This document shows positions 4,313 through 25,917 of a stretch of DNA of 32,669 bases, one piece after another (position 1 is the first letter of the stretch; each line of letters begins with the position of its first letter). The stretch comes from Rhodopseudomonas sp. BR0M22 (GTDB taxonomy: Bacteria > Pseudomonadota > Alphaproteobacteria > Rhizobiales > Xanthobacteraceae), in the NCBI RefSeq assembly GCF_010907035.1, contig NZ_QUMK01000069.1, forward strand, positions 1 through 32,669, written 5' to 3'. The notes under the pieces were generated by a model that saw only the letters and a program-made list of their open reading frames with translations, was not told the origin of the DNA and made no database searches. The position numbers and the translations under genes are program-made.

Positions 4313-4316
4313 CGGA

Positions 4317-9721: not shown

Positions 9722-9773
9722 CACAAATTCCGCAAGCAGAAATTCGACAAGTAATCGATCCATCGCCGATCGA

Positions 9774-9824: not shown

Positions 9825-9831
9825 TGGGTAA
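9799..9831. promoter_or_regulatory. Probable TetR operator with a repeated half-site
   Basis: TTACTCATGGGTAA (9799-9812) is a near-perfect palindrome (TTACYCATGRGTAA). The sequence ATGGGTAA recurs at 9824-9831, 19 bases from the first copy. The palindrome covers both -10 boxes, ideal for simultaneous repression of both arms by the adjacent TetR protein. Confidence 0.6.
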
Positions 9832-9846
9832 GTTAGGGAGGAAACG

Positions 9847-11031: not shown

Positions 11032-11041
11032 GGCAAATCTG

Positions 11042-11910: not shown

Positions 11911-11933
11911 CAACAAGCATTCGAGGAAAGCTC

Positions 11934-12761
11934 ATGGGCAAACTGCAAGGCAAGGTAGCGCTGGTCACCGGATCGGGCCGCGGCATCGGCCGCGCCATCG
12001 CGCTGAAGCTCGCGTCCGAAGGCGCGCGCGTCGTCGTCAACGATCTCGACGCCGAACCGGGCGACGCCGTCGCCGCCGAGATCAAGGCGATGGGCAGCGA
12101 TGCGATCGCCATCAACGGCAGCGTCTCGGAGGCCGGCTTCGCCGATCGCTTCGTCGGCGCGGCGGTGGAAAAATTCGGCGGCCTCGACATCATCGTCAAC
12201 AACGCCGGCTACACCTGGGACTCGACGATCCAGAAGATGACCGACGAGCAGTTTCAGGCGATGCTCGACGTACATCTGGTGGCGCCGTTCCGCATCCTGC
12301 GTGCCGCCGCCGAGCCGATCCGGATCTTTGCCAAGAAGGAAGCCGAGGCCGGCCAGGAGGTGTTCCGCAAAGTCGTCAACATCTCGTCGATCGCCGGGCT
12401 CTACGGCAATGCCGGGCAGGCCAGCTACTCGTCGGCGAAAGCCTCGCTGGTTGGGCTGACGCGGACGCTGTGCAAGGAATGGGGCCGCTACAAGGTCAAC
12501 GTCAATTGCGTCGCGTTCGGCCTGATCAACACCCGCCTCACCCAGCCGATCGAAGCGCAGCAGAAGACCATCGACGTCGCCGGCCGCGACATCAAGGTCG
12601 GCGTGCAACCGCAGATGCTGGATGCGATGGCGCGCATGATCCCGCTCGGGCGCGGCGGCACGCCGGAGGAAGCCGCCGACGCAGTGTATCTGTTCTGCAG
12701 CCCGGAATCGAACTACGTCAGCGGCCAAGTGCTGGTCTGCGGCGGCGGCTTGATCCTGTAA
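11934..12761 (+). CDS. Short-chain dehydrogenase/reductase, probable 3-hydroxyacyl-CoA dehydrogenase
   Basis: A 275-residue classical-to-complex SDR. The cofactor motif TGSGRGIG is at 12-19, and an acidic VVVNDLD (33-39) at the end of beta-2 predicts NAD over NADP. NNAG is at 89-92 and the catalytic Ser151/152-Tyr165-Lys169 lie in NISS and YSSAK. An insert around 128-145 (EPIRIFAKKEAEAGQEVF) resembles the peroxisomal type-4 17-beta-HSD group. Start ATG 11934 follows GAGGAAAG, 23 bases after the MaoC gene. The (R)-hydroxyacyl stereochemistry from a MaoC hydratase matches this SDR type. Activity is inferred from context. Confidence 0.88.
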   Translation: MGKLQGKVALVTGSGRGIGRAIALKLASEGARVVVNDLDAEPGDAVAAEIKAMGSDAIAINGSVSEAGFADRFVGAAVEKFGGLDIIVNNAGYTWDSTIQKMTDEQFQAMLDVHLVAPFRILRAAAEPIRIFAKKEAEAGQEVFRKVVNISSIAGLYGNAGQASYSSAKASLVGLTRTLCKEWGRYKVNVNCVAFGLINTRLTQPIEAQQKTIDVAGRDIKVGVQPQMLDAMARMIPLGRGGTPEEAADAVYLFCSPESNYVSGQVLVCGGGLIL

Positions 12762-12777
12762 GCAGGGGATTTCGGCA

Positions 12778-13554
12778 ATGACCCTCGTTCTATCTGAGCG
12801 GCGCGGCGCCGTCGCGGTGCTGACGTTGAACAACCCGGCGCAATACAACGCGATGCGCCGCGGTCTGCTCGGCGAGCTCGGCGCCGCCTTGATCGCGGCG
12901 CTCGCCGACGATGCGGTGCGCGCCATCCTGCTCTCCGGCGCCGGCAAAGGCTTCTGCGCCGGCGCGGCGCTCGGCAGCGAGACGTTCGGGGCCGGCGCGG
13001 ACGTCGCGCCGTGGATGCGTGCCGAACTCAGCCCGGTGCTCGAGGCGATGCGCGGCGCGGCGAAGCCAATCGTCGTCGCGGTCAACGGCCCCGCGGCCGG
13101 CGCGGGCGTCGGCCTGGCGCTCGCCGGCGACATCGTTCTGGCGGCGCGCTCGGCGAAATTCGTGCTGAGCTTCGTCAAGCTCGGCGCCGCGCTCGATGCC
13201 GGCACCTCGCTGTTCGTACAGCGCGCGATCGGCGTGGCGCGTGCGCGCGCCCTGGCGCTGCTCGGCCGTCCGCTGTCCGCCGAACAGGCCGAACAATCCG
13301 GCCTGATCTTCCAGGCCGTCGACGACGAGCGCCTGATGGATGAGGCGATGGCCATCGCCGAGCAGCTCGCGGCCGGCCCGCCGATCGGCATCGGCCTGAT
13401 CAAGCGCCAGATCGAAGCCGCATGGGCAGCCCCGCTCGCCGAGGTGCTGGACGACGAAGCCGAACAGCAGGGCCGCGCCTTCGTCACCGCGGACCTGCGC
13501 GAAGGCGCTGCCGCCTTCGTCGAGAAACGCGCGCCGAACTTTACCGGCGTGTGA
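12778..13554 (+). CDS. Crotonase-fold enoyl-CoA hydratase/isomerase, PaaG-like
   Basis: A 258-residue crotonase. The oxyanion-hole segments are GKGFCAGAAL (57-66; the usual GADL is GAAL here) and NGPAAGAGVGLALAGD (103-118). At the second catalytic position it has Asp140 in KLGAALDAGTS rather than the hydratase Glu, as in PaaG-type isomerases. This predicts delta3-delta2-enoyl-CoA or ring-epoxide isomerisation more than hydration. It is the last gene of the operon. Its stop overlaps the eutC stop from the opposite strand by 14 bases, with no visible terminator between them. Confidence 0.88.
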   Translation: MTLVLSERRGAVAVLTLNNPAQYNAMRRGLLGELGAALIAALADDAVRAILLSGAGKGFCAGAALGSETFGAGADVAPWMRAELSPVLEAMRGAAKPIVVAVNGPAAGAGVGLALAGDIVLAARSAKFVLSFVKLGAALDAGTSLFVQRAIGVARARALALLGRPLSAEQAEQSGLIFQAVDDERLMDEAMAIAEQLAAGPPIGIGLIKRQIEAAWAAPLAEVLDDEAEQQGRAFVTADLREGAAAFVEKRAPNFTGV

Positions 13555-14284
13555 GAAGCGCCACGCCGCTCGTTTCCGTCCGGATCATGTCCAGCACGAG
13601 AGCGACCACCGACTCCGCCGCCGCTTCGATCGAGAGTCCGCCGCGGCGGATGTTGGAGATACAGTTGCGCCGCGAGTCTGGCGTCCCGGTTTTCGGGCCA
13701 TAGGTGATGTAGACGCCGAGGCTGTCGGCCGCCGACAGACCGGGCCGCTCGCCGATCATCACGATCGAGATCCTGGCACCCAGCGCCTCCCCGACCGCGT
13801 CGCCGAGCGCCACCCGCGCTTGCGACGCGAGCACGATCGGCGCCACCGCGAGCCGGTGCAGCTGCAGCCGCCCGATCACGGCGCGGATCAGCGGCGCGGC
13901 GTTGAGATCGATCGCGCTCGCCGAGAGGCCATCGCCGACGACGATCGCGACGTCGCTGCCGCGGGGCATCCCCGCAAGGCAATGGCTCGATCTGTCGGAC
14001 AGCTTACGGCCGAGATCGGGGCGGCGTACAAACGTGCTGCGGTCATGCGCCGCGCTCTCCACCGCCACTGTACCAACCGGAAGATCCGCCAAGCGCTCGA
14101 CGAGGCGGTCCCAATCCACCACCGACCACACCGCTTCGCGGGCGCGCGCATGATCGAGCAGAAATGCTTGCGCCGCGCGCGTCGGCAGGCCGGCGCCGAA
14201 CCGGCCAAGCTGAACGCGCGCCTCGGTCATCCGCCGAAGATCGATCGCAGGCGGTTCGCGCCTCGTCAGGCTGTCCTCAGCCAT
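13541..14284 (-). CDS. eutC: Ethanolamine ammonia-lyase small subunit
   Basis: The light chain (247 aa) of adenosylcobalamin-dependent ethanolamine ammonia-lyase, which with EutB converts ethanolamine to acetaldehyde and ammonia. Hallmarks are LGRFGAGLPTRAAQAFLLDHARAR near 26-49, VVGDGLSA and IGERPGLSAADSLGVYITYG, followed by DSRRNCISNIR. The N-terminus is shorter than in enteric EutC (about 295 aa), as often outside microcompartment systems, since the enteric extension helps target the shell. The start overlaps the eutB stop by eight bases. It is the last of eleven co-directional genes. Confidence 0.95.
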   Translation of the reverse strand: MAEDSLTRREPPAIDLRRMTEARVQLGRFGAGLPTRAAQAFLLDHARAREAVWSVVDWDRLVERLADLPVGTVAVESAAHDRSTFVRRPDLGRKLSDRSSHCLAGMPRGSDVAIVVGDGLSASAIDLNAAPLIRAVIGRLQLHRLAVAPIVLASQARVALGDAVGEALGARISIVMIGERPGLSAADSLGVYITYGPKTGTPDSRRNCISNIRRGGLSIEAAAESVVALVLDMIRTETSGVALLTRR

Positions 14285-15677
14285 GCCGCGCCTCCAGCAG
14301 TCGCAGTGCGGCGATGTCGTTCGTCAATTTCAGCGGCGAGTCCAGCAGCCGGCCGCTGGCATCGGTCAGGCCGATTTCGCCGAGCCAGCGTTCGAACTCC
14401 GGCGCAGGCGGACGCCCCAATGTCTCGCGGCAATACTCGGCGTCGTGATGTGCCAGCGACTGATAGTTCAGCATGACATCGTCGGCACCTGGCACCGTGA
14501 TGACAAAATTGACGCCGGCGGCACACAGCAGCGTCAACAGCGCGTCCATATCCTCCTGGTCGGCGTCGGCGTGGTTCGTGTAACAGACGTCGACGCCCAT
14601 CGGCAGGCCGAGCAGCTTGCCGCAGAAGTGATCCTCCAGCCCGGCACGGATGATCTGCTTGCCGTTGAACAGATATTCCGGACCGATGAAGCCGACCACA
14701 GTGTTGACCAGCAGCGGCTGAAATTCACGGGCGATTGCATAGGCACGCGCTTCCATGGTCTGCTGATCGACGCCGAAATGCGCATCCGCCGACAGCGCCG
14801 CCCCCTGCCCGGTCTCGAAATACATCAGATTGGCACCAGCAGGCGCACGCTTGAGCCCGCGCACCGCCTCGTGTGCCTCGCGCAGCATCGCCAGATCGAC
14901 GCCGAATCCGTCATTGGCCTTCTGCGATCCGGCGATCGACTGAAACACCAGATCGACCGGCGCCTCGGCCGCAATCGCCTTGATGGCGGTGCTGACGTGG
15001 CCGAGGCAACAGGTCTGGGTCGGGATCGCCAACCGCGACCTCAGTTCGTCGAGCAGCTCGACGATGCGGACGTAGTCGGACACGGTGTCGGTCGCGGGAT
15101 TGACTCCGATCACCGCATCGCCCGTCCCCATCAATAGCCCGTCGATCGCAGAGGCGGCGATGCCCAGTGAATCGTCGGTCGGATGATTGGGCTGGTTACG
15201 CGTCGACAACCGCCCCTTCAAGCCGATGGTCGAACGGAACCGCGTCACGACTTGGCGCTTGGCGGCGACAGCAATCAGGTCCTGTAGCCGCATGATCTTC
15301 GACACCGCAGCAACCATTTCCGGCGTGAGCCCGAAGGTCAACGCTTCGAGCTGTGGCTGTTGGACTTCCGGCCGCAGCAACCATTCACGGAACTGCCCCA
15401 CGGTGAACGACGACACCGCCGCGAACGCCGCCGGATCGTGCTGCGCCGCGATCAACCGCGACACCTCGTCGTCGTCGGACGGAATCAGTTCTTCGGCCAG
15501 AAACGCCTTCAGCGGCAGGTCGGCAAGCGCCATCTGCGCCGCTAGCCGCTCGACCGGCCCCTCCGCCGAGATGCCGGCGAGCTGATCACCCGAGCGCTCG
15601 GGCGTGGCCTTGGCCATCAATTCCTTGAGGTCGGCAAAGCTGAAGGTCGTCCGCTCGATTGTGGTCCGATACGGCAT
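14277..15677 (-). CDS. eutB: Ethanolamine ammonia-lyase large subunit
   Basis: The heavy chain (466 aa) carries the radical-B12 active site in a TIM barrel. Family segments run through the whole length: TFSFADLKELMAKATPERSGD at the N-terminus, STIGLKGRLSTRNQPNHPTDD, GLLMGTGDAVIGVNPATD, FQSIAGSQKAN, MYFETGQGAALSA, PMGVDVCYTNHADADQED and VPGADDVMLNYQSLAHHD. Length matches E. coli EutB (453) closely, so it is complete. It has no eutA reactivase, eutH or shell gene beside it, unlike enteric clusters. It lies six bases after the phosphatase gene. Related amino alcohols such as 1-amino-2-propanol are known alternative substrates for the family. Confidence 0.96.
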   Translation of the reverse strand: MPYRTTIERTTFSFADLKELMAKATPERSGDQLAGISAEGPVERLAAQMALADLPLKAFLAEELIPSDDDEVSRLIAAQHDPAAFAAVSSFTVGQFREWLLRPEVQQPQLEALTFGLTPEMVAAVSKIMRLQDLIAVAAKRQVVTRFRSTIGLKGRLSTRNQPNHPTDDSLGIAASAIDGLLMGTGDAVIGVNPATDTVSDYVRIVELLDELRSRLAIPTQTCCLGHVSTAIKAIAAEAPVDLVFQSIAGSQKANDGFGVDLAMLREAHEAVRGLKRAPAGANLMYFETGQGAALSADAHFGVDQQTMEARAYAIAREFQPLLVNTVVGFIGPEYLFNGKQIIRAGLEDHFCGKLLGLPMGVDVCYTNHADADQEDMDALLTLLCAAGVNFVITVPGADDVMLNYQSLAHHDAEYCRETLGRPPAPEFERWLGEIGLTDASGRLLDSPLKLTNDIAALRLLEARHG

Positions 15678-15683
15678 CTCAAG

Positions 15684-16469
15684 TCACCGGTCGATCAACG
15701 CCAGGGCCTGCGCATGCAGGGCCGGCGTGGCGCTCGCCAATACGCGGCCGTCGGATTGCATCGACAACGGCGCGCCGTTCCAATCGGTGATGCAGCCGCC
15801 GGCCCCCTCGAGCACTGGCACCAGCGCCATGTAGTCGTAAGGCTGCAGCCCGGTCTCCAGCGCGATGTCGCAATGGCCGGACGCGAGCAATCCGTAGATG
15901 TAGCAGTCACCGCCGAACCGCCGCATCCGCGCGGCCCGTGACAGCCGCTCGTAGGCCGCAGCCTCCTCACCTACGAACATATCCGGCGAGGTGGTGTAGA
16001 ACCTTGCCTCGGCGATCGTCGAACAACCGCTGGTTTTGGCACGGCGACCGCCGAACATCGTCTCGCCCGGCTTGGCGATCCATCGCTCGCCGGTCACGGG
16101 AACATCGATCACGCCGCAGAAGGGGCGACCCTCGCGGGTGAGCGCAATCAGCGTACCGAACAATGGAAAGCCGGTGATGAAACTCTTGGTCCCGTCGATC
16201 GGATCGATGATCCAGGTCAGAGTTTGTCCCGGCTTGGCCCCCATCTCCTCGCCGTAGATGCCGTGATCCGGAAACCGCGCCTCGATGCGGTCGCGGAGCG
16301 CCCGCTCGATGGCTCGATCGGCGATCGTCACCGGGCTCTCGTCGGACTTCAGCACGACATCGAGCGAGGTGCGGAAGTACTTCATCACCATCGGCTTGAC
16401 AGCGTCGAGCAGTTCTCCGGCGAACGACAGATAGAGGTCGGCGTCGTCCAATAATTCGATATCGGTCAT
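15684..16469 (-). CDS. Inositol-monophosphatase-family phosphatase (HisN-like)
   Basis: A 261-residue Mg2+-dependent phosphatase. The metal sites are GEEMG (73-77) and DPIDGTKSFITG (89-100), plus the third-metal segment QPYDYMALVPVLEGAGG near the C-terminus. It resembles the IMPase-type histidinol-phosphate phosphatases most, including GVIDVPVTGERW. The start is ATG 16469, whose A is shared with the TGA of the preceding kinase gene; an in-frame upstream extension lies inside that kinase gene and is spurious. Its place between kinase and eutB genes suggests that it removes a phosphate from a pathway intermediate, or limits one, rather than serving histidine synthesis. Substrate is not known. 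Confidence 0.85.
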   Translation of the reverse strand: MTDIELLDDADLYLSFAGELLDAVKPMVMKYFRTSLDVVLKSDESPVTIADRAIERALRDRIEARFPDHGIYGEEMGAKPGQTLTWIIDPIDGTKSFITGFPLFGTLIALTREGRPFCGVIDVPVTGERWIAKPGETMFGGRRAKTSGCSTIAEARFYTTSPDMFVGEEAAAYERLSRAARMRRFGGDCYIYGLLASGHCDIALETGLQPYDYMALVPVLEGAGGCITDWNGAPLSMQSDGRVLASATPALHAQALALIDR

Positions 16470-17404
16470 CACAGGGCCTTCAGGAACAACGGCCATCGCG
16501 GGTCGTGGATAATCGAGCGTGCCCGCATGTGCTTCCAGATGCCGTATTTGTAAAAGTCGAAGTCGAGCGTCGACATCCGGTTCTGCACCATCGCCCAGGT
16601 GCTCCATTTGATATCGGCCAAGGCCTTGTGAACGATGAAGCGGGCGTGCAGGCTCTTGTCGTAGCGGCCGAAATAGTCCTCGATGATCTCCTGCTCGACG
16701 CTCTCCGGAAAGAAGTGCTCGCCGCTCCAGATCGCAAGGTCGTATAGTCGCTCGTTGTTCGAGGCGTATTCGAAGTCGATCAGCTTGATCGAATTGTCGG
16801 CTCCGACCAGAAAGTTGCCCGGCATCGGATCGTTGAAGCACGGCACGAGATCGAGCCCGGACGCCTCCAGCGCGGCGCGAGCCTCCTGATACTGCCGATA
16901 CAGCCAGGCGTGGTCGGCCGGCCAGTGACCGCCGAGCTCTTCGACCTGGGCATAGTGCTCGTCGATCATATCGAACACGGTCTTGGTCAGCGGCAACGGC
17001 GGCGCCTCGTGGAAGCGACGATAGATCTGCACCACGCCGGCGCGAAACGCCCGATCGATGCAGTCGCGATGCGTCGATGGCCGGCGGTCGCCGAGAAACT
17101 CCGACACTTCGATGTCGAGATGATCGAGATAATCGAAGGTGCGTGGCCCGACCGCCATGGTCTCGGCCTGCAGACTGGCGGCACGCGCCGCCTTGCGATC
17201 GATGAACATCTCGGTCCCGCGGCCCGGGATTTTGACGAAGTAGGCGTGCGGTTCGCCGTCGACCACAACTCTGAAATTGGTGTTGCTGATGCCCCCCGAC
17301 ACCGGATGATAGGACATCCGGCGTCCGGCCCAGGCCTCGACCTGGACGATGGCGGCTTCGAGGGTCCGTTCTGCCTCGGATCTGGCGGCTCCGATTTCGG
17401 CCAT
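16469..17404 (-). CDS. Choline/ethanolamine-kinase-like phosphotransferase
   Basis: A 311-residue protein-kinase-fold small-molecule kinase. SGGISNTNFRV (36-46) corresponds to the nucleotide-binding loop of choline kinases and Lys58 in YFVKIP to the ATP lysine. CFNDPMPGNFL (189-199) is the catalytic loop with Asp192 and Asn197. LIDFEYASNNERLYDLA (208-224) carries the metal-binding Asp210 and the choline-kinase signature. LicA and eukaryotic choline/ethanolamine kinases share this pattern. It probably phosphorylates the hydroxyl of an amino alcohol, which fits a cluster that ends in EutBC. It lies 15 bases after the other kinase gene and shares one base with the phosphatase gene. Confidence 0.85.
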   Translation of the reverse strand: MAEIGAARSEAERTLEAAIVQVEAWAGRRMSYHPVSGGISNTNFRVVVDGEPHAYFVKIPGRGTEMFIDRKAARAASLQAETMAVGPRTFDYLDHLDIEVSEFLGDRRPSTHRDCIDRAFRAGVVQIYRRFHEAPPLPLTKTVFDMIDEHYAQVEELGGHWPADHAWLYRQYQEARAALEASGLDLVPCFNDPMPGNFLVGADNSIKLIDFEYASNNERLYDLAIWSGEHFFPESVEQEIIEDYFGRYDKSLHARFIVHKALADIKWSTWAMVQNRMSTLDFDFYKYGIWKHMRARSIIHDPRWPLFLKAL

Positions 17405-17419
17405 TGTCGCGCTCTCTCG

Positions 17420-18385
17420 CTACAGGGTTCTCAATCGCTCTTCGAATCCGGGCAGCCCGAGCAGCATCCGGCATCGCAGGAAACGCCACCCGGCGTATTT
17501 CAGGAATTCAACGCCGGGCAACGACGAACGCGCATTCTGCAGCAGACTCCGCAGCGCCCAGTAGAAATCATCGGCCGCGGCATACAGGCGGCAGCGGCTG
17601 AAAGCGGCTTCGCTGTAGGTGCCGTCGTGAATTTCGAGCAGCGGCTTCATCTGACTCTCGAACTGGTACAGCTCGTTCATCTGCACACCGAGCTGGTAGT
17701 AGGGGTCGATGTCGCCGGCCATATCGAAGTCGACGAGTTGCAGCGCCCCGCCCGGCCCGATCATGACGTTGGAGGAATGCGGATCGCCGTGCGCCGGCTT
17801 GTAGGTTACGCCGGCCGCATCGATCGCCTGCCGGATCGCTCTGATCCACGCCATCATCCAATCGGCGTCGCCGGGCATTCCACTGGACTCTGCGGAGACG
17901 AGCGGCCACAGCCGATCAATGCCATCGAACACCGACCAGGGCCGGCCGAACGGTTCGCCCGCAGCGATGCACTTGTGCATCTCGACCAGCTGCGCAGCCG
18001 TTTCCAAGCTCATCAGATCGTCGATTCTCGCCGTTCGCCAGCCTTCGCCGAGCCGCGCGAACAGCGTCGCGCGCAGCTCGGGCAGATGCGCGACAGGTTC
18101 GGGCGACAGGCCGAGCGCATGCAGACGGCGCGCCGCCGCGATGGCGGCAGCATCGTCGACCAGTTCGGCCACTTCGTCGCTGGCGAGCCGCAAGAACAGA
18201 GCCGGCTCACCGCCGGCGGACGCAACTGCGAACGAGGTCGACTCCACGGCATGGTAGGATGGCGACGCGACCGGCAGCGTTGCCGGCGCATAGGTCACCG
18301 TCGCCGGGTCGATCGATGCGATGCTGAGCAATGCCCGCTCGGCACGCTGCTCCTGGCCGCTTGCCGGTTGGCCGAGAGGCTTCAT
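17420..18385 (-). CDS. Aminoglycoside/choline-kinase-fold phosphotransferase
   Basis: A 321-residue APH-superfamily kinase, clearly different from its neighbour. The Brenner loop AHGDPHSSNVM (198-208) has catalytic Asp201 and Asn206, and QLVDFDMAGDIDPYYQLG (216-233) carries the Asp219 metal site. The N-lobe is less conserved and lacks the GGxxN loop seen in the next kinase, though PALFLRLAS (61-69) may be the strand before the ATP-binding region, with Arg in place of the usual Lys. The ATG overlaps the M20 hydrolase stop (ATGA). It could phosphorylate a sugar-like or amino-alcohol intermediate. The substrate is unassigned. Confidence 0.8.
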   Translation of the reverse strand: MKPLGQPASGQEQRAERALLSIASIDPATVTYAPATLPVASPSYHAVESTSFAVASAGGEPALFLRLASDEVAELVDDAAAIAAARRLHALGLSPEPVAHLPELRATLFARLGEGWRTARIDDLMSLETAAQLVEMHKCIAAGEPFGRPWSVFDGIDRLWPLVSAESSGMPGDADWMMAWIRAIRQAIDAAGVTYKPAHGDPHSSNVMIGPGGALQLVDFDMAGDIDPYYQLGVQMNELYQFESQMKPLLEIHDGTYSEAAFSRCRLYAAADDFYWALRSLLQNARSSLPGVEFLKYAGWRFLRCRMLLGLPGFEERLRTL

Positions 18386-19671
18386 GTCGCGGCCTCCTTG
18401 AGGTCGACTGCCTGCAGGCCTTCACTGGCGATGGTGTACAGCATGTCCGCCAGGATCTGTGTCGCGCGCGTATAGTCCTCCGGACTGGTGAACTCGGTCG
18501 GATGGTGGATGACGCCGTCGCGCGAGCGCACCGCCATGACGATCGACGGACATACGCTCGACATTGCCACCGCGTCGTGGCCGCCGATGGTGTCGAGATG
18601 CCGCGCCGTCTCGCCGTAGTCCGCGGCGACCTGCTCCGCGAGCGCAACCAGTGGCGGCGCGAACCGGCCGGCCTTGCGGCGATCGATCGACCGCACCTCG
18701 TAGGTCACGCCGGCTTTGTCGGCGGCGGCTTCGATCCGCAACTTCATCTTGCGCTCGGCCTCGGCCAGCACCTCCGGCGAGCCCGATCGCAGCTCGATGA
18801 ACAGCACCGCTTCCGACGGCACGGTGTTCGGCGAGTTCGGAAACACTTCGAGCCGCCCCACCGAGGTGTGCAGATCGAGGCCGTGCTCGCCGGCAATCTC
18901 TTTGAGATCGCCGATCAGATAGGCCGCGGCGAGCAGCGCGTCCTTTCGCTCGGCCATCGGCGTCGGACCGGTGTGCGCCTGCCGGCCGAGGAATGCCAGT
19001 CGATACTTGGTGGCCCCCCAGTAGCGCGTGAACACGCCGAACAGCTCGCCCGCCTCGAACAGATGCTTGTCGCCTTCGATGTGAAGTTCGATCAGCGCGT
19101 CGGGCACTGGCACCTTGTCGCTGCCGGCGTAGCCAATCTCGGCCAGCGCCTGACGCACGGTCACGCCGTCGCCGTCGGCCCGGTCGAGTGCCCAATCGAG
19201 TTCGGCGGATCCGGCGAACACGCTGCTGCCGAGCAGGCTCGGCTGAAACCGGGCGCCCTCCTCGTTGGTCCAGTTCACCACCTGGAAATTGCAGGCCGAC
19301 AGCCGGTTCTCCGACTTCAGCTTCTCGGCCACAGCCAACACCGCCTCGCAGGCCGCCACCACGCCGAGCGCGCCGTCGAACCGACCGCCATTGGGCTGGC
19401 TGTCGATATGCGAGCCGACCATGATCACCGGCGCATTGGCGCCGGCCAGCGCAGCCTTGCCGAACTGATTGCCGATGGCGTCGATCGACTGAACAAAATC
19501 GTGCTCGGCGAACCATCGGCCCAGCCAGTCGCGCGCTTCGCCGTCGGTCCGGGTCAGGCTCATTCGGTTCATCGAGCCGTCGGGGCCGCCCCCGAACGTC
19601 GACAATTCCCCCATCATCGCGCGAAGCCGCGACGGATCGATGGGAGCACGAAGATGGGTCTTATCAGGCAT
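18382..19671 (-). CDS. M20-family amidohydrolase (carbamoylase/allantoate amidohydrolase type)
   Basis: A 429-residue binuclear-metal hydrolase of the HyuC/AllC branch. Metal ligands sit in VGSHIDSQPNGGRFDG (His88 and Asp99), NEEGARF (Glu137/138), ELHIEG and the C-terminal HHPTEF. IGGHDAVAMSS is the conserved dimer-domain segment, with RQAHTGPTPMAERKDAL as the lid region. These enzymes remove N-carbamoyl or similar groups from amino acids or ureides, releasing CO2 and NH3. In this operon it may free an amine before or after phosphorylation. It overlaps DeoR by eight bases and the kinase gene by four. Confidence 0.88.
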   Translation of the reverse strand: MPDKTHLRAPIDPSRLRAMMGELSTFGGGPDGSMNRMSLTRTDGEARDWLGRWFAEHDFVQSIDAIGNQFGKAALAGANAPVIMVGSHIDSQPNGGRFDGALGVVAACEAVLAVAEKLKSENRLSACNFQVVNWTNEEGARFQPSLLGSSVFAGSAELDWALDRADGDGVTVRQALAEIGYAGSDKVPVPDALIELHIEGDKHLFEAGELFGVFTRYWGATKYRLAFLGRQAHTGPTPMAERKDALLAAAYLIGDLKEIAGEHGLDLHTSVGRLEVFPNSPNTVPSEAVLFIELRSGSPEVLAEAERKMKLRIEAAADKAGVTYEVRSIDRRKAGRFAPPLVALAEQVAADYGETARHLDTIGGHDAVAMSSVCPSIVMAVRSRDGVIHHPTEFTSPEDYTRATQILADMLYTIASEGLQAVDLKEAAT

Positions 19672-20425
19672 GAATGATGTCCACGTTCAATTGACGGAAG
19701 CGATCGGTGAAGTCCTTGGTCAGCGCGCCGCCGGTGATCACCGCATCGACATCGCCGAGACCGAAAGTGTGGATCGAGCCGAGCCGGCCGAATTTGGAAC
19801 TGTCTGCGACGATCACCGAGCGCTTCGCCTGGTTGCGCGCGACGCGGCGGACGATGGCTTCGTCCTCGCCGTAATCCATGAAGCCGCGCTCGGCGTGAAC
19901 CGCGCTGATCGCGACGATGGCGAGATCGAAATAGTGATCCTTGATCGCCACCATGGTCTCCGGGCCGAACGTCGCCTGATAGTCGGCGCGCAATCGGCCG
20001 CCGAGCACCCGAACGCTCGGCGTCGACAGATAGTAGAAGTGCGCGGCCACGGCCAGCGAGTGGGTGACGATGGTCAGGTCCTTGCGGGACTCGAGATACT
20101 TGAGGCAGGCCAGCGCGGTGGTGCCCTCGTCCACGAAGATCTTCATGCCGTCCGCGACCAGTTTTGCCGCGGCTTCGCCGATCCTTGCCTTCTCGCGGGC
20201 GCCGACGCGCAGACGATCGGCGAACGGCTGATCGCTCTCCTGCCGATCGAGCACGGCGCCGCCATAGACCCGCCGGGCGAAGCCTTCGGTCTCCAACTCG
20301 CGCAAGTCGCGCCGGATCGATTCCTGGCTGACGCCGAGCTGCTCGACGAGGTCCTTCACGAGGACACGCTGCTTCTGCCGCAGCAGGTCCCGGATCAGCT
20401 CGAGCCGATTCTCGGTGAAACTCAT
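19664..20425 (-). CDS. DeoR-family transcriptional regulator
   Basis: A 253-residue repressor-type protein. The N-terminal winged helix is NRLELIRDLLRQKQRVLVKDLVEQLGVSQESIRRDLRELE, ending in the family motif RRVYGGAV. The C-terminal DeoRC sugar-phosphate-isomerase-like domain includes FVDEGTTALACLKYL, THSLAVA, VLGGRLRADYQATFGPET and VIVADSSKFGR. Most characterised members respond to a phosphorylated metabolite, which fits an operon with two kinases. The start ATG 20425 follows GGAG. It lies inside the operon, between transport and enzyme genes, so it is probably autoregulated. Candidate operators are at 25945-26059. Confidence 0.9.
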   Translation of the reverse strand: MSFTENRLELIRDLLRQKQRVLVKDLVEQLGVSQESIRRDLRELETEGFARRVYGGAVLDRQESDQPFADRLRVGAREKARIGEAAAKLVADGMKIFVDEGTTALACLKYLESRKDLTIVTHSLAVAAHFYYLSTPSVRVLGGRLRADYQATFGPETMVAIKDHYFDLAIVAISAVHAERGFMDYGEDEAIVRRVARNQAKRSVIVADSSKFGRLGSIHTFGLGDVDAVITGGALTKDFTDRFRQLNVDIIHA

Positions 20426-20487
20426 GGGTGCTCCACAATTCCCGGACGCTGGCGGGACCACGTCTCGACGCGCATCATCGTCGTCAT
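20422..20487 (-). CDS. Possible 21-residue bridging ORF between ATPase and DeoR genes
   Basis: An ORF starting MTTMMRVETW shares ATGA with the ATPase stop at its beginning and ATGA with the DeoR start at its end. It fills the 58-base gap exactly in a different frame. No separate ribosome-binding site is visible other than termination-reinitiation. It could carry ribosomes from one gene to the next; a chance ORF is equally possible. Confidence 0.25.
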   Translation of the reverse strand: MTTMMRVETWSRQRPGIVEHP

Positions 20488-22337
20488 GCTCCCGGCTGCG
20501 CCGCCGCAACAAAGTTGTTCGTGACTTCGTCGGCGATCACCGGCGGCGTCACCAGATGACAGGCAGCGAAATCCTGCGCACCGCGCACCGTCAAGCTCGG
20601 ATTGACGTGGCCGCATTTGTCCATCGCCTGCGGGCAGCGCGATTTGAAACTGCAGCCGTCGGGGATCGCCAGCGGGCTCGGGGGCTCACCCTCGAGCAGA
20701 TAGTCCTCGGGTTGATAGCGCCGCTGCTCCAGCGTCGGCATCGCGCTGAGCAGCGCCATGGTGTAGGGATGGCCGGGATCGAAGAACAACCTCTCGTTCT
20801 CGGCCAGTTCGAACACCTCGCCGAGATACATCACCGCCACGCGGTTACAGACCTTCCGCACCATCGCCAGATCGTGGGAAATGAAGATGTAGGTCAGGTC
20901 GTATTCCCGCTGCAGCCGCTGGAACAGGTCGAGCAGCTTGAACTGTTCGGCCTGATCGAGCGACGACAGCGTCTCATCCATGATCAGAATCTCCGGCTCC
21001 AACACCAGCGCACGGGCGACGTTGACGCGCTGGCGCTGCCCCGCGCTGAGCCCGAGCGGCAGCTCTTCGTACAGCTCCGGCGGGAGGCCGACCTCGGTCA
21101 TCACCCGCACGACACGTTCGCGAATTTTGGCGCGGTCGCGCCATCCGTGCGTGCGCAGCGGCTCTTCCAGCATCCGGCCGATCGCAGTCCGCGGCGGCAG
21201 CGAACCGAACGGATCCTGTAGCACGAGCTGAAGCTTGCCGCGGAACTTCAGCAACGCTTTGCCGCCGAGGGTCGCGATGTCCTGATCGTCGCACAGCACC
21301 TGCCCCGCACTCGGCAGCTCCAGCCGTGACAACAGCCGCATCAGCGTCGATTTCCCACAACCGGACTCGCCGACGATGGCGAAGCTGTCGCCGCGGTGGA
21401 CGTCGAAGGTGACGTTGCGCACCGCGCGGACCAGGTCGTGACCTCCAAGACCGGTCCTTCGCTTCACCTTGTAGGACTGCGATGCGTCGCGCAGACTCAG
21501 CACCACCTCGCGCGTGCCCTCAGGACGCGGCGGCACCTCCGCCTCGTTCCAGATCTTCGGCGTCTGCCCGACCAGTTCGCGGGTGTAGGGATAGATCGGG
21601 TTGGCGATCAGCGCCTCGGTCGCCTGCTCCTCGACGATCCGGCCGTGCTCCATCACCAGCGTGCGCGAGCACGCCTCGCGGACCACCGGGAGCGACGACG
21701 ACACGAACAGGATCGCGGTGTCGAAGGTCGCCGCGAGCTCCTTCATCAGCCGGATCACCTGCGCCGCGACGGTGACATCGAGCGGCTGGGTGACGTTGTC
21801 CGCCACCAACAGCACGGGATTGGTCACGAGCGCATCGACGATCAGCGCCCGCTGCATCATGCCGCCGGAAAATTGCGACGGATAATCGTGGAATCGGTTC
21901 CGGGCGGACGGGATGCGGACTGCCTCGAGCAGTTCGATCACCCGCTTCTCGGCGTCGCGCCGCGACGTTCCCGGCACCACCGCCCGCATCTTTTCGACGA
22001 TCTGGGCGCCGACCGGAAGCGTGGGATCGAGCGAACCCATCGGGTTGGCGCCGACATAGGACATCCGCTGACGCAGCGTCCGCATCTCGGCTTCGCCCAT
22101 CGCGTAGATGTCGCGCCCTTCGAATTTCACCTCGCCGGAGCGCCGCGTGAGCGGCGGCTCCAGCCAATTCACCACCGCGCGCGACAGCACTGTCTTGCCG
22201 GCACCGCTGGCACCGACCACGCCGACGATCTCGCGTGGCGCCAGCCGCAGCGATACGCGGTCAAGGATGACCTTGGCGCCGTCGCCGCTGCCGGCCGTCA
22301 CCGTCAGATCGGTCAAATCGAGAAGCGGCCGGGTCAT
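20484..22337 (-). CDS. Fused double ATPase of a Dpp/Opp-type ABC importer, first domain degenerate
   Basis: A 617-residue protein with two nucleotide-binding domains. Domain 1 (about 7-250) has Walker A GASGAGKT (42-49) and signature SGGMM, but the Q-loop Gln is Ala97, the Walker-B Glu is Asn181 (VADNVTQPLD) and the switch His is Ser214. Domain 2 (about 278-540) has Walker A GESGCGKS (323-330), Gln374, Glu455 in IMDETLSSLD and His488, all intact, but its signature is LSAGQ (430-434). The C-terminus carries the Cys-containing oligopeptide-transporter tail (CSFKSRCPQAMDKC). It energises the two adjacent permeases. The start follows GGAGG and lies two bases after the permease stop. Confidence 0.92.
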   Translation of the reverse strand: MTRPLLDLTDLTVTAGSGDGAKVILDRVSLRLAPREIVGVVGASGAGKTVLSRAVVNWLEPPLTRRSGEVKFEGRDIYAMGEAEMRTLRQRMSYVGANPMGSLDPTLPVGAQIVEKMRAVVPGTSRRDAEKRVIELLEAVRIPSARNRFHDYPSQFSGGMMQRALIVDALVTNPVLLVADNVTQPLDVTVAAQVIRLMKELAATFDTAILFVSSSLPVVREACSRTLVMEHGRIVEEQATEALIANPIYPYTRELVGQTPKIWNEAEVPPRPEGTREVVLSLRDASQSYKVKRRTGLGGHDLVRAVRNVTFDVHRGDSFAIVGESGCGKSTLMRLLSRLELPSAGQVLCDDQDIATLGGKALLKFRGKLQLVLQDPFGSLPPRTAIGRMLEEPLRTHGWRDRAKIRERVVRVMTEVGLPPELYEELPLGLSAGQRQRVNVARALVLEPEILIMDETLSSLDQAEQFKLLDLFQRLQREYDLTYIFISHDLAMVRKVCNRVAVMYLGEVFELAENERLFFDPGHPYTMALLSAMPTLEQRRYQPEDYLLEGEPPSPLAIPDGCSFKSRCPQAMDKCGHVNPSLTVRGAQDFAACHLVTPPVIADEVTNNFVAAAQPGA

Positions 22338-22339
22338 GA

Positions 22340-23254
22340 TCACGAACCTCCGTGGATCGCGTTGCGCGCGCGTTCGAGCGAGGCGCCCATCAGGTTGATG
22401 CTGGTGAGCGTGAGGCCCAGGAACATGCCGGGCATGGTCGCGATCCACCACGCGTTGATCAGATATTTGCGTCCGTCGGCGATGATGTTGCCGAATGTCG
22501 GTGTCGGCGGCTGCACCCCGAGGCCGAGAAAGCCGAGGGTCGATTCGAAGATCATCATCCGCGCGACGTCGAGCACCGAGGTGAACAGGACCGGTGGCAG
22601 CAGCAGCGGCAGCAGCAGCGTCACGATGATGCGCAGGTCGGTCGCACCGCCGATCTTCGCGGCGCGGACGTACTCACGCTGGCGCTCGGTCATCACGATG
22701 CTGCGCATGATCCGTGCGTAGACCGGCCAGTTCGACACCCCGAGCACCAGAATGATCGCCGGAATCGTCGGCCGCGACACGCCGAGCACGGCGATCGCCA
22801 GGATGATCATCGGAATCGAGAGCTGGGCATCGGTCAGGCGCATGATGACCGCGTCGATCCGGCCGCCGAAGTAGCCCGCAATGGTGCCGAGCGCGCATCC
22901 GATCGCAAGCATCACCGCGACGGAGGCAATTCCGATCAGGAACGAGTAGCGCAGACCGACCAGCGACCGTACCAGCATGTCGCGGCCGATCTGATCGGTG
23001 CCGAGCGGATGCGCCCAGCTCCAGTTGCTGCCGACCAGCAGCGGCGGCAGCAACCGTGCCTTGACGTTCATCTTGGTCGGATCGATGCCGCTGAGTTCGG
23101 GATACAATGCGGCGGCGAGCGCGAGCACGACGAACACCGCCAGCCCGATGCGGAAGCCCGGCGTCGAGGCCGCTTTGGCGAAGATCCGCCGCGAGATCGA
23201 TTGCGAGGTGCGGTGCGGGACCGCCGGCCCTGCGGTTGCGAGTGTGACTGACAT
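22340..23254 (-). CDS. ABC importer permease, DppC/OppC-like
   Basis: A 304-residue inner-membrane permease. An N-terminal cytoplasmic stretch of about 40 residues precedes helix 1 (FRIGLAVFVVLALAAALYP). The DppC hallmark HPLGTDQIGRDMLVRSLVGLRYS lies near 89-111 and the EAA coupling loop near KIGGATDLRIIVTLLLPLLLPPVL. The ATG at 23254 is the first Met that gives a normal DppC N-terminus; longer in-frame extension reaches into the upstream permease gene and is not real. Eleven bases separate it from the upstream permease. Confidence 0.92.
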   Translation of the reverse strand: MSVTLATAGPAVPHRTSQSISRRIFAKAASTPGFRIGLAVFVVLALAAALYPELSGIDPTKMNVKARLLPPLLVGSNWSWAHPLGTDQIGRDMLVRSLVGLRYSFLIGIASVAVMLAIGCALGTIAGYFGGRIDAVIMRLTDAQLSIPMIILAIAVLGVSRPTIPAIILVLGVSNWPVYARIMRSIVMTERQREYVRAAKIGGATDLRIIVTLLLPLLLPPVLFTSVLDVARMMIFESTLGFLGLGVQPPTPTFGNIIADGRKYLINAWWIATMPGMFLGLTLTSINLMGASLERARNAIHGGS

Positions 23255-23265
23255 CGGGGCGAACC

Positions 23266-24246
23266 TCAGTATTCGAGCCGGGGGTCGACGGTCGTTGCCA
23301 CGAGGTCGACGACGATATTGATCAGGACGAAGATCGCGCTGGTCACGATCGCAATTCCCTGGATCAGCGGGAAGTCGCGCTGCAGAACAGCGTTGATGGT
23401 GAGAAGACCGAGCCCCGGATAGTCGAAGATGTATTCGACGATGATCACGCCGCCGAGCAGGCTGGAGAACTGCACGCCGAGCAGATTGAGCAGCGGCACC
23501 GAGGCATTGCGCATCGCGTGGTTGGCGATGATCCGGCTGCGGCTGAGCCCGCGCACGCGTCCGACCGAGACGTAGGGCTCCATCATCTGCGCCGATACCG
23601 AGCTGACGAGCGTGCGGATCAGCACGGGCGACAACTCGACGGCCAGGACGATGGCGGGAAGGATGGTGTAGGCGAAGCCCTGATAGCCGATCGCGGGAAG
23701 CCAACCGAGCTTCACCGACAGCAGCAGCGCCAGGACGATGCCGAGCCAGAAGTTCGGCAGCGAAATGAACAGCGACGAGATGTAGAAAGCGAGCTTGTCC
23801 GGCCACCGGCCGATCGCGAGCCCCCCGGCGATTCCGACCACGCCGGAGAAAACCAGCGCAATCACCAGCGTCACCGCGGCGAGCTGCAGCGTCATGGGGA
23901 GCGCTTCGAGAATGAGGTCGAGCACTTCGGCCCGCTCACCGCGGGTCGAATCGTTGAAGGTCGCGCCTCCGGTCGCGGCGCCGTTGGCGGGGCGGACGAA
24001 CGACTGTCCGAGGTCGCCCCGCACGACATGGCCCATGTAGCGCCCGAACTGCACGATGATCGGATCGCGCAGCCCCATCTCCTTGGCGATCTTCTCGATC
24101 AGCGCGTCCGGCGCCATGCCACCCGCCATCATCCGCACCGGGTCGCCGGGCACGACCCGCAACAGCGTGAAGATCAGAAACGACACCAGGAAGATGATGA
24201 CCACGCCCTGCGACAGGCGGCGGATCAGAAAGTTGAGAACGAACAT
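23266..24246 (-). CDS. ABC importer permease, DppB/OppB-like
   Basis: A 326-residue inner-membrane permease starting MFVLNFLIRRLSQGVVIIFLVSFLIFTLLRVVPGDPV, the classical DppB N-terminus. The periplasmic loop before helix 2 includes LGQSFVRPANGAATGGATFN and is longer than usual by roughly 20 residues. The EAA loop is YVSVGRVRGLSRSRIIANHAMRNASVPLLNLLG. The C-terminal DPRLEY is typical. With the DppC-like partner it forms the channel for a di/oligopeptide-, nickel- or other small-solute-type importer. Confidence 0.92.
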   Translation of the reverse strand: MFVLNFLIRRLSQGVVIIFLVSFLIFTLLRVVPGDPVRMMAGGMAPDALIEKIAKEMGLRDPIIVQFGRYMGHVVRGDLGQSFVRPANGAATGGATFNDSTRGERAEVLDLILEALPMTLQLAAVTLVIALVFSGVVGIAGGLAIGRWPDKLAFYISSLFISLPNFWLGIVLALLLSVKLGWLPAIGYQGFAYTILPAIVLAVELSPVLIRTLVSSVSAQMMEPYVSVGRVRGLSRSRIIANHAMRNASVPLLNLLGVQFSSLLGGVIIVEYIFDYPGLGLLTINAVLQRDFPLIQGIAIVTSAIFVLINIVVDLVATTVDPRLEY

Positions 24247-24317
24247 GGCTTTGTTGCTCCGGATCGATCGAGTGACCTCACGGCCACGAGGCCCGCGCCG
24301 CGTGCGAGAATCTGCTT

Positions 24318-24333
24318 CGCGGCGCGCGCCGCG
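24318..24333. repeat. Perfect GC palindrome directly after the binding-protein stop
   Basis: CGCGGCGCGCGCCGCG is a perfect 16-base palindrome immediately downstream of the binding-protein TGA. A second GCGCCGCG...CGCGGCGC pairing is possible in the same 87-base gap before the DppB-like gene. It would stabilise the 3' end of the binding-protein message or slow read-through. Confidence 0.55.
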
Positions 24334-25917
24334 TCAGGCCGAGCGTTGCGAGGCGTCGATCGAGCCGTCCGGATAGATGTAGATGCCGGCGAACTCCTTC
24401 TGCATGGCGTGGATCATCACCGAGGTGAACAGCGACAGCGCCGGCACCTTGGAGGCGAGCAGCGGCATCGTCTCGGTCTGCAGAACCTTCTTCCGTTCCT
24501 CGAGCGTCGGTGCGTTGCGTTCCTTGTCGAGGCTGGCGTCGATATCCTTGTCGACGATGCCGCAAATGCGGTGCGAGCTCGAATGGAAGTGCGTGCGCAG
24601 CACGAGGTCGGGCTCGGGCGAGCCGGTCGACCAGCCGCAATCCACCATATGGCCGGGGCCACCGCCGGGCCGGTCGTACAACCGCTCGTTCCACGCCGCC
24701 GGCTCCAGCACGGTCAGGCTGACCTTGAAGCCCTGCTCGTTGAGCATCTCCGTGATGATCTCGCCGTATTCCTTGGTTTTCGGATAGAATCCGACCGAGG
24801 TGATGTATTCGAGCGGCGGCAAGCCCTTGCCCTTGGGAAAGCCGGCCTCGGCCAGCAGCGCCTGGCACTTGTCAGGATCGAATTTCGGATAGTTCGGCAG
24901 ATCGATGTAGCCGAACTTCACCGGCGAAACGTAGTTCGCCGAAGCGTGGCCCGCGGAGCCGAGCAGATCGAGGATGACGTCGCGATTGATGGCGTGGCAG
25001 GCCGCCATGCGGACCCGCACATCGTTGAACGGCGGCTTGGAGCAGCGGAACCAGAGATATTTGTTCTCCACCGACACCACGCGATTGATGTGGATATTCG
25101 GCTTGTCCTTGATGGTGTCGACCTGCTCCGGCTCGAGCCGTTCGACGATCGACGCCTGACCATTCATCAGCGACAGCATGCGCGTCGTGGAGTCGCCGGT
25201 GAAAGTGAAGTTGATCCCGGCGATCGCCGGCTTGCCCTTGAAGTAGTCGTCATAGGCCGTCATCACGGTGTCGTTGCCGCGCTGTTCGACGAATTTGAAC
25301 GGGCCGGTGCCGTTCAGCCGCTGCGACAGCACCCCGCCCGGACCACCTGCGATATCCTTTGCGGACATCATCGGCAGGAACGCGGCGAGAAACATGAAGA
25401 GATGCGCCGGGTAGCCGCCCTTCGAGGTGTCGACAATCACCGTGTAGTCGTCGGGCGTCTCGATCTTCAGCGTCTCTGTCGGGCCGGGGTACCACTGCGC
25501 CGGACGGTCGGACCTGGAGCCGTATTCGAAGGTCGCCTTCACGTCCTCCGCCTTGAACGGCTTGCCATCGTGGAATTTGATGCCTTCGCGCAGCTTGATC
25601 TGCAGCCGGTGGGGATCGAGCAGCTTCAGATCAGTAGCGAGCTCGTAAACGACCGCCGAGGGGTCCTCGAGCTTCATCGGCGTGCGGGTCAGAAAACCCA
25701 TCACGAAACCTTCGATGTTCTTCTGCGATAGCGTCGTATGTGCCGTCGGATCCCAGTTGCCGGTGATGTTCTCGGCCGACAGGAAGGTCATGGTCTTGCC
25801 GGCCTGCGCATGCGCCGGAGAGATGAAGAAGTCCGGATTGATCTGAACGTAACCTGCCGCGGCGGCAGCCCCCGCGGCTCCTTTCAGGAAGTTGCGGCGG
25901 CTAAGGTCCGAATGCAT
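24334..25917 (-). CDS. ABC importer substrate-binding protein (SBP family 5, peptide/nickel type)
   Basis: A 527-residue periplasmic receptor of the DppA/OppA class. The start ATG 25917 gives a twin-arginine signal, SRRNFLKG (6-13), a short hydrophobic Ala/Gly core and an AHA-QAG cleavage near 40; longer in-frame extension has no such sense. Mature-domain features include TTLSQKNIEGFVMGFLTRTP, GIKFHDGKPFKAEDVKATFEYG, GTGPFKFV and RMAACHAINRDVI. First of the eleven-gene unit. Tat export is common for this class in alphaproteobacteria. The ligand is not predictable from the fold. The eutBC, kinase and amidohydrolase genes downstream suggest an amino-alcohol derivative or ureide. Confidence 0.92.
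   Translation of the reverse strand: MHSDLSRRNFLKGAAGAAAAAGYVQINPDFFISPAHAQAGKTMTFLSAENITGNWDPTAHTTLSQKNIEGFVMGFLTRTPMKLEDPSAVVYELATDLKLLDPHRLQIKLREGIKFHDGKPFKAEDVKATFEYGSRSDRPAQWYPGPTETLKIETPDDYTVIVDTSKGGYPAHLFMFLAAFLPMMSAKDIAGGPGGVLSQRLNGTGPFKFVEQRGNDTVMTAYDDYFKGKPAIAGINFTFTGDSTTRMLSLMNGQASIVERLEPEQVDTIKDKPNIHINRVVSVENKYLWFRCSKPPFNDVRVRMAACHAINRDVILDLLGSAGHASANYVSPVKFGYIDLPNYPKFDPDKCQALLAEAGFPKGKGLPPLEYITSVGFYPKTKEYGEIITEMLNEQGFKVSLTVLEPAAWNERLYDRPGGGPGHMVDCGWSTGSPEPDLVLRTHFHSSSHRICGIVDKDIDASLDKERNAPTLEERKKVLQTETMPLLASKVPALSLFTSVMIHAMQKEFAGIYIYPDGSIDASQRSA

What the first reader, a model, noticed from the sequence alone, without database searches (positions are those of the whole stretch)
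13541..25917. Eleven-gene unit joining an ABC importer, amidohydrolase, two kinases, a phosphatase and EutBC
All eleven genes run in one direction with gaps of at most 87 bases and several overlaps, so they look like one operon. Known ethanolamine clusters use EutH or permeases, EutA, aldehyde dehydrogenase and often a shell. Here EutBC is combined with an M20 carbamoylase-type enzyme, two APH-fold kinases, a HisN-like phosphatase, DeoR and a Dpp-like importer. I infer a route for a modified amino alcohol (N-acyl, N-carbamoyl or phospho-linked) that ends in radical-B12 deamination. The substrate is unknown.
Basis: partly seen in the sequence, partly recalled or inferred. Interest (0 to 1): 0.75.

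Follow-up and report, generated by a model that had tools for sequence, protein, structure and literature searches.

The report
Kinase-hydrolase operon that releases ethanolamine
A widespread set of bacterial genes seems to import an unknown ethanolamine-containing compound, tag it with phosphate, cut it with a modified amide-splitting enzyme and burn the freed ethanolamine, a route for which I found no description in the literature I could search.

Summary
The eleven genes are really there, on one strand, with gaps of at most 87 bases and four overlaps. They are no isolated oddity: the same order occurs in 15 of the 80 best KinB neighbourhoods in named genomes, and M20-KinA-KinB follow one another in 79 of 80. 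The unit is an eight-gene core (importer, DeoR, M20, KinA, KinB), often with a HisN-like phosphatase, to which EutBC was added. Other bacteria attach a different ethanolamine pathway (gamma-glutamylethanolamide) to the same core, so the core most likely releases ethanolamine. The M20 enzyme keeps the anion-binding residues of carbamoylases and carries three nearly invariant basic residues that are rare or absent in 30 control enzymes. I propose that a kinase phosphorylates the hydroxyethyl end of an N-acyl or N-carbamoyl ethanolamine, M20 recognises the phosphate and cuts the amide, the HisN-like enzyme removes the phosphate, and EutBC deaminates ethanolamine. The parent compound, the reason for two kinases and the order of steps remain unknown. 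Genome-wide co-occurrence of the core with EutB or any ethanolamine outlet is not significant.

The parts
24334..25917 (-). Dpp/Opp-type substrate-binding protein (Tat-type signal), 527 aa
   Evidence: SBP families, Tat signal 26.6 bits; solved relatives DppA (107 bits) and AccA (about 80 bits)
23266..24246 (-). permease PermB (DppB-like), 326 aa
   Evidence: BPD_transp_1 117 bits
22340..23254 (-). permease PermC (DppC-like), 304 aa
   Evidence: BPD_transp_1 86 bits
20484..22337 (-). fused two-domain ATPase (DppD-DppF type), 617 aa
   Evidence: two ABC_tran stretches, oligo_HPY
19664..20425 (-). DeoR-family regulator, 253 aa
   Evidence: DeoRC 139 bits
18382..19671 (-). M20 amidohydrolase of carbamoylase type with module-typical K222, R273, R332 and Gly at the usual Gln position 200, 429 aa
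   Evidence: AF2 model pLDDT 92.7
17420..18385 (-). KinA, APH/choline-kinase-fold kinase, 321 aa
   Evidence: APH 39.8 bits; 3dxq relative; KinA found in 79 of 80 KinB loci (in the other, L165, KinB lies at the contig edge)
16469..17404 (-). KinB, choline/ethanolamine-kinase-like kinase, 311 aa; W267, W270, Y287 invariant in a 26-row alignment
   Evidence: PF01633 76.4 bits over cut-off 29; C-terminal WxxW...DFDF..YG as in the P. vivax ethanolamine kinase chain
15684..16469 (-). HisN-like phosphatase of IMPase fold, 261 aa, second copy beside a better-scoring HisN
14277..15677 (-). EutB, ethanolamine ammonia-lyase large subunit, 466 aa
   Evidence: 682.8 bits; 15 of 16 checked positions as in E. 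coli (A249 is C there)
13541..14284 (-). EutC, ethanolamine ammonia-lyase small subunit, 247 aa
   Evidence: 274 bits

Best explanation
The operon is a catabolic route for a small, water-soluble compound in which ethanolamine is held by an amide or ureide bond. The ABC importer brings it in. KinB (perhaps with KinA) phosphorylates the hydroxyethyl end. The N-acyl-O-phosphoethanolamine so formed has nearly the shape of N-carbamoyl-beta-alanine, a substrate of the same M20 family, with phosphate in place of the carboxylate. The M20 enzyme binds that phosphate with its canonical R295/N282/H233 set plus K222, R273 and R332, and cuts the amide. The HisN-like phosphatase removes the phosphate from phosphoethanolamine, and EutBC turns ethanolamine into acetaldehyde and ammonia. 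Shown by sequence: the genes, their conservation, the altered M20 and HisN, and the repeated attachment of ethanolamine pathways. Inferred: the substrate class, the phospho-intermediate and the order of steps.
For: (1) M20-KinA-KinB in order in 79 of 80 loci, HisN directly after KinB in 39 of 80. (2) Different ethanolamine outlets beside the same core: a EutBC clade after HisN (KinB-HisN-EutB in 21 of 80; 21 of 22 module EutB rows form one clade, 100/100); an unrelated EutBC on pRi1724; FGase + GS-like + ALDH + Fe-ADH in L179, with the same layout by best hits in L170, the set assigned to ethanolamine in Phaeobacter (PMC10132767, passages), its GS-like protein 71.6% identical to one inside a TRAP-linked copy of that operon; SDR + ALDH + C26 hydrolase + GS-like in Arthrobacter, the GlnA4 set of S. 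coelicolor (PMC6529630, passages). (3) M20: K222 115 of 115, R332 115 of 115, R273 114 of 115; controls W 29 of 30 at 222, R 5 of 30 at 273, and F14, S5, I2, N2, K2 as the five commonest at 332. The AF2 model puts K222, R273, R295 and R332 on four of the five strands of segment 211-332. (4) The HisN-like gene is a second copy beside a better-scoring HisN; 54 of 60 module copies fall outside the clade spanning 30 housekeeping copies; histidinol phosphate is itself a 2-amino-alcohol phosphate (recalled). (5) KinB ends like an ethanolamine kinase. (6) In L074 a urea-ABC-type binding protein takes the place of the Dpp importer, which fits a small amide or ureide.
Against: Genome-wide, KinA-positive genomes carry EutB in 11 of 25 against 69 of 272 others (p 0.058) and any outlet in 20 of 25 against 182 of 272 (p 0.26) (overlaps counted by hand from their tables; test): no significant dependence. 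Five of the 25 show no outlet at these thresholds, and one of the 25 (G037) is a weak match with only a 28% KinB hit. Closeness of K222/R273/R332 to the active site was not measured (no coordinates). The controls are the best-scoring members of the carbamoylase model, so they are not a random sample. Two kinases are unexplained. In the canonical M20 mode the anion site reads a carboxylate, so an N-acyl amino acid substrate would also fit R295/N282/H233. HisN or IMPase is seen in only 45 of 80 loci. KinB's best solved relatives are 3dxq (88 bits) and a bacterial choline kinase (57 bits), ahead of the ethanolamine kinase (34 bits).
Confidence: 0.48

Rival explanations
1. The core releases ethanolamine, but hydrolysis comes first: M20 (and in other bacteria the amidase) cut an unphosphorylated N-acyl/N-carbamoyl compound, and the kinases act on the co-product or make phosphoethanolamine for other uses, with the phosphatase as overflow control.
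For: Same ethanolamine outlets. KinB resembles choline/ethanolamine kinases. Canonical carboxylate-binding residues are kept in M20.
Against: Leaves the three extra conserved basic residues of M20 unexplained. A kinase and a phosphatase acting on the same ethanolamine just before EutBC would be a futile cycle.
Confidence: 0.27
2. The product is another 2-amino alcohol (2-aminopropanol, serinol or similar) rather than ethanolamine, from a conjugate of that amino alcohol.
For: Ethanolamine ammonia-lyase also accepts 2-aminopropanol (recalled). The module EutB forms its own clade with a long stem of 0.56.
Against: EutB pocket residues are those of ordinary EutB, and the alternative outlets attached in other lineages are ethanolamine pathways.
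Confidence: 0.15
3. EutBC, kinases and M20 serve unrelated substrates and merely sit in one operon.
For: 58 of 80 core loci show no EutB. Genome-wide co-occurrence is not significant.
Against: Four apparently separate attachments of an ethanolamine pathway to the same core. The 11-gene order is kept in Bradyrhizobium, Tardiphaga, Neorhizobium, Agrobacterium and Methylobacterium.
Confidence: 0.1

Closest known systems
Short eut loci (permease + EutBC) and canonical ethanolamine utilisation
   Same: EutBC as the ethanolamine-consuming step; the eight named pocket residues identical.
   Different: No EutA, EutE, shell protein or ethanolamine permease family among the eleven proteins (each protein was scanned in at least one library). 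Importer, M20, kinases and phosphatase sit upstream. The module EutB is a clade of its own.
gamma-Glutamylethanolamide pathway (GlnA4 of S. coelicolor; ethanolamine operon of Phaeobacter MED193)
   Same: Consumes ethanolamine; attached to the same core in L070, L170 and L179.
   Different: Not in the window; no GS-like match at 1e-90 in G000.
M20 carbamoylase family (N-carbamoyl-beta-alanine / N-carbamoyl amino acid / allantoate amidohydrolases)
   Same: Zinc ligands and anion-binding H233, N282, R295 kept; NCBIfam PRK09290.2-1 697.8 bits over 424.
   Different: Gln200 replaced in 77 of 115; K222, R273, R332, W218 typical of the module.
Choline/ethanolamine kinases and the structural-genomics protein 3dxq
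   Same: Fold and C-terminal aromatic motif in KinB.
   Different: Two tandem paralogues in a catabolic operon; substrate unknown.
Histidinol-phosphatase HisN (IMPase type)
   Same: 288 bits over the equivalog cut-off of 275.
   Different: A second copy beside a 339-bit HisN; 40-47% identical to 30 housekeeping HisNs, with S45 (51 of 60), F104 (53) and S147 (54) where housekeeping copies mostly have D, W and R.
1-Amino-2-propanol kinase / phospho-lyase route (recalled)
   Same: Amino-alcohol phosphorylation as a catabolic device.
   Different: No PLP phospho-lyase among the eleven proteins; a phosphatase and a B12 lyase instead.
Agrocinopine Acc systems
   Same: Dpp-type importer; an IMPase-family phosphatase (recalled for AccG).
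   Different: No phosphodiesterase among the eleven; kinases and M20 instead.

Membership tests
Ethanolamine ammonia-lyase (EutBC) | EutB and EutC above curated cut-offs with intact active site | tested here: met
   682.8 and 274.3 bits; R160, Q162, N193, F258, E287, V326, F329, D362 (E. coli numbers; roles recalled) identical in 21 of 21 module-clade rows
Ethanolamine ammonia-lyase (EutBC) | Deaminates ethanolamine with adenosylcobalamin | not testable with these tools
   no assay
Canonical eut operon | EutH/permease, EutA, EutE or shell genes in the same unit | tested here: not met
   none of the eleven proteins matches such a family
gamma-Glutamylethanolamide pathway | GS-like ligase + ADH/SDR + ALDH + gamma-Glu-Gly amidohydrolase | tested here: not met
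   not in the window; GS-like 0 matches at 1e-90 in G000. Gene set present in L070 and L179
M20 carbamoylase | Zinc ligands and H/N/R anion site | tested here: met
   H88, D99, E138, H197, H389, H233, N282, R295 kept in at least 114 of 115 rows (roles recalled)
M20 carbamoylase | Gln of the HIEQG motif | tested here: not met
   G200 in the window; Q in 38 of 115 module rows, 30 of 30 controls
Choline/ethanolamine kinase | PF01633 above cut-off | tested here: met
   KinB 76.4 over 29; KinA 25.8, below 29
Choline/ethanolamine kinase | Phosphorylates free choline or ethanolamine | not testable with these tools
   no assay
Histidinol-phosphatase of histidine synthesis | Equivalog score | tested here: met
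   288 over 275.15
Histidinol-phosphatase of histidine synthesis | Groups with housekeeping HisN | tested here: not met
   window copy and 53 others of 60 module copies lie outside the clade spanning the 30 housekeeping copies; 6 lie inside (FastTree, midpoint root)
Amino-alcohol kinase / phospho-lyase pathway | PLP phospho-lyase in the unit | tested here: not met

The most novel reading that the evidence does not exclude
A catabolic logic not described in what I searched: bacteria phosphorylate the alcohol end of an ethanolamide or ethanol-ureide so that the phosphate serves as a recognition handle, replacing the carboxylate, for a rebuilt M20 carbamoylase, and then remove it with a repurposed histidinol-phosphatase. 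Two module types exist. In one, M20 has lost the carbamoyl-binding Gln; in the other it keeps Gln and works with an amidase.
Probability: 0.4. Interest if true: 0.72.

Novelty: new variant of a known kind. Interest (0 to 1): 0.57.

Why it matters
The core occurs in rhizobia, agrobacteria, Ri plasmids, methylobacteria, Pseudomonas, Caballeronia, marine alphaproteobacteria and an Arthrobacter plasmid, so its substrate is probably common in plant and marine settings. Current annotations (allantoate amidohydrolase, histidinol-phosphatase, phosphotransferase) hide a single pathway. Finding the ligand would name a natural ethanolamine reservoir and explain a repeated coupling with ethanolamine catabolism; the M20 residues give a direct test.

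Tried and rejected
Rejected: a plain ethanolamine operon (no permease; M20 and kinases are the conserved part). Rejected: HisN as a displaced histidine gene (better-scoring HisN elsewhere; separate group). Rejected as evidence: genome-wide co-occurrence of core and EutB or any outlet (p 0.058 and 0.26); the GS-like threshold of 1e-90 also lets in matches of 41-49% identity of unsure function. Tried without result: literature for this gene set. Searches returned no paper; one search found 177 papers with four of five terms, 15 listed, none of them about this gene set by title or opening lines; others (2 papers; 1; 3) gave nothing that describes it by listing; one search gave three papers on Ti plasmids or soil strains, seen as listing only. 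An own-genome search for the pRi1724 amidase gave 14 amidase-family matches at 27-42% identity, so no close amidase partner was found and none can be assigned. Thought of and dropped for lack of a fit: agrocinopine-like phosphodiesters, pantetheine, N-acyl homoserines, siderophores with ethanolamine, guanitoxin-like compounds (KinB scores 110 bits on GntI, far below its cut-off of 357). Not decided: N5-(2-hydroxyethyl)glutamine, 2-hydroxyethylurea, N-acylethanolamines (recalled candidates). The ORF caller gave some wrong-strand calls; counts come from tblastn. Rows: the 80 loci are the best of 306; 115 M20 rows come from 123 loci scanned (8 gave no near-full M20) and include the same genome twice in some cases (e.g. 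L037/L107, L065/L066). Three EutB rows (L066, L138, L037) were dropped before the tree. The Fisher tests treat related rows as independent.
Full report
What is there. The window lies in a 5.29 Mb assembly (G000, contig C125), by its relatives an alphaproteobacterium of the Hyphomicrobiales (inferred). Eleven genes at 13541-25917 run on the minus strand in the order SBP, PermB, PermC, fused ATPase, DeoR, M20, KinA, KinB, HisN-like, EutB, EutC. Intergenic distances are 87, 11, 2, 58, -8, -4, 15, -1, 6 and -8 bases. EutC overlaps a convergent enoyl-CoA hydratase gene by 14 bases at 13541-13554. The promoter scan found none inside; terminator-like matches were fewer than in shuffles. These scans are weak evidence; conservation of order is the stronger evidence for one unit.

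The unit is a core with add-ons. KinA hits 25 of 297 Hyphomicrobiales genomes at E 1e-20 (one of them, G037, is weak) and 90 plasmid records at 1e-5; KinB hits 85 plasmid records at 1e-30. A KinB alignment (A1, 26 rows) found 306 relatives in named genomes; the best 80 were kept with up to 10 kb on each side. In these 80, KinB is present in 80, KinA 79, M20 79, Dpp-type SBP 64, ATPase 65, DeoR 58 (a second DeoR type in 11), HisN 40 plus IMPase-labelled 5, EutB 22, EutC 19, amidase 16. By order of labelled genes, M20-KinA-KinB stand together in 79, the eight-gene core in 47, KinB-HisN in 39, KinB-HisN-EutB in 21 and all eleven in 15. An Allorhizobium S4 plasmid and an R. leguminosarum plasmid have the eight-gene core without EutBC (in another R. 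leguminosarum plasmid, L035, the permease/ATPase stretch is broken); Agrobacterium pAspH13-3a has all eleven. In L123 EutB survives only as a fragment and in L113 EutC does, so EutBC can be lost while the core stays. R. johnstonii 3841 has the core on pRL12 and a EutB elsewhere in its genome. Among the 25 KinA-positive Hyphomicrobiales genomes only G000 and G236 show EutB beside the core in the stretches fetched (a few stretches are short).

Why ethanolamine. EutB here matches E. coli EutB at 15 of 16 checked positions, the exception being A where E. coli has C249 (the functional roles of the residues are recalled). The tree of 53 EutBs puts 21 of 22 module rows in one clade (100/100, stem 0.56), while the pRi1724 EutB lies elsewhere, so EutBC seems to have joined the core at least twice. 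A third case is possible: L149 has a split EutB match divergent from the SBP, nearest to the pRi1724 EutB. Two further lineages attach another ethanolamine pathway. In Arthrobacter U41 the kinases, M20, amidase and IMPase share a divergent locus with SDR, ALDH, a C26-type gamma-glutamyl hydrolase and a GS-like ligase, the gene set of the S. coelicolor GlnA4 pathway (PMC6529630, passages; also PMC9397018, passages). In Oceaniradius L179 KinB is followed by FGase, GS-like, ALDH and Fe-ADH, and L170 shows the same layout by best hits, with the fourth ORF unlabelled. This is the set assigned to ethanolamine in Phaeobacter MED193 (PMC10132767, passages). The L179 GS-like protein is 71.6% identical to one in a Ruegeria plasmid operon with FGase, a TRAP transporter, ALDH and Fe-ADH. 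Four apparently separate attachments of ethanolamine catabolism to one core are hard to explain unless the core yields ethanolamine. Against this, presence across whole genomes is not significantly linked: EutB in 11 of 25 KinA-positive genomes against 69 of 272 others (p 0.058), any outlet in 20 of 25 against 182 of 272 (p 0.26) (tables, overlaps counted by hand; test).

The altered M20. Controls were 30 M20s, the best-scoring carbamoylase-model matches of other loci, whose fetched stretches hold no KinA/KinB match. Compared with them, 115 module M20s keep zinc ligands and the anion-binding H233, N282 and R295, but have K222 in 115 (controls W 29, R 1), R332 in 115 (controls F 14, S 5, I 2, N 2, K 2 as the five commonest), R273 in 114 (controls H 7, R 5 and others) and W218 in 115 (controls Q 28). 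The Gln of HIEQG, present in 30 of 30 controls, is kept in 38 of 115 and replaced by Gly in 72 and Cys in 5. Gln goes with an amidase gene within 7 kb of KinB: Q in 25 of 28 with amidase, 13 of 87 without (related rows counted as independent). Five of those 13 (L065, L066, L067, L178, L181) have an amidase further upstream. The AF2 model (pLDDT 92.7) places K222, R273, R295 and R332 on strands 219-228, 267-277, 287-296 and 323-332, four of the five strands of the segment that forms the lid domain (domain name recalled); proximity was not measured. Extra conserved positive charge next to a carboxylate site suggests a dianion. N-acyl-O-phosphoethanolamine is close in length to N-carbamoyl-beta-alanine (my inference), so a kinase-made phosphate would give this M20 its handle.

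Kinases and phosphatase. KinB is over the choline-kinase cut-off, its W267, W270 and Y287 are invariant in 26 rows, and its C-terminus aligns with an ethanolamine kinase chain, although 3dxq and a bacterial choline kinase score higher overall. KinA is a diverged neighbour; whether the pair is a heteromer or two steps is open. The HisN-like protein scores above the HisN cut-off, but the genome has a better HisN (339 bits), and 54 of 60 module copies group apart from 30 housekeeping copies, with characteristic changes at 45, 104 and 147. Histidinol phosphate is a 2-amino-alcohol phosphate, so a shift to phosphoethanolamine is chemically short (recalled chemistry).

Transport. The Dpp-type importer is exchanged elsewhere for Liv-type permeases with a binding protein that in the one case tested is of urea-ABC type (L074: TIGR03669 342 bits, below its cut-off of 494.8), or for a sodium-solute symporter. 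This fits a small amide or ureide.

Verdict. The best reading is an ethanolamine-releasing pathway using phosphate tagging, which I did not find described (open-licence PMC papers only, seen in part). The parent compound is unknown.

Noticed in passing
G000:C78, locus L063:6275-10300: The genome's second EutB and EutC are separated by a 583-aa B12-binding/radical-SAM/DUF4070 protein and preceded by a chemotaxis receptor, an unusual eut arrangement.
   Followed up: partly
window 13541-13554: EutC and a convergent enoyl-CoA hydratase gene (12778-13554 +) overlap by 14 bases at their 3' ends.
   Followed up: no
window 3089-13554: Left of the operon lie Liv-type permeases and binding protein, an AMP-binding ligase, a thiolase and an enoyl-CoA hydratase, which look like an acyl-CoA catabolic cluster.
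   Followed up: no
L065 (pRi1724 68943-97866): A hairy-root Ri plasmid carries the core with amidase, FGase-family protein and its own EutBC beside a sugar-type importer and glycerol genes.
   Followed up: partly
L071 (Pseudosulfitobacter pSMR1-3): The core sits about 8 kb from nadA, L-aspartate oxidase, nadC and panB genes; probably chance.
   Followed up: no
115 module M20 rows: The active-site Gln co-varies with the presence of an amidase gene, suggesting two functional subtypes of the module.
   Followed up: partly
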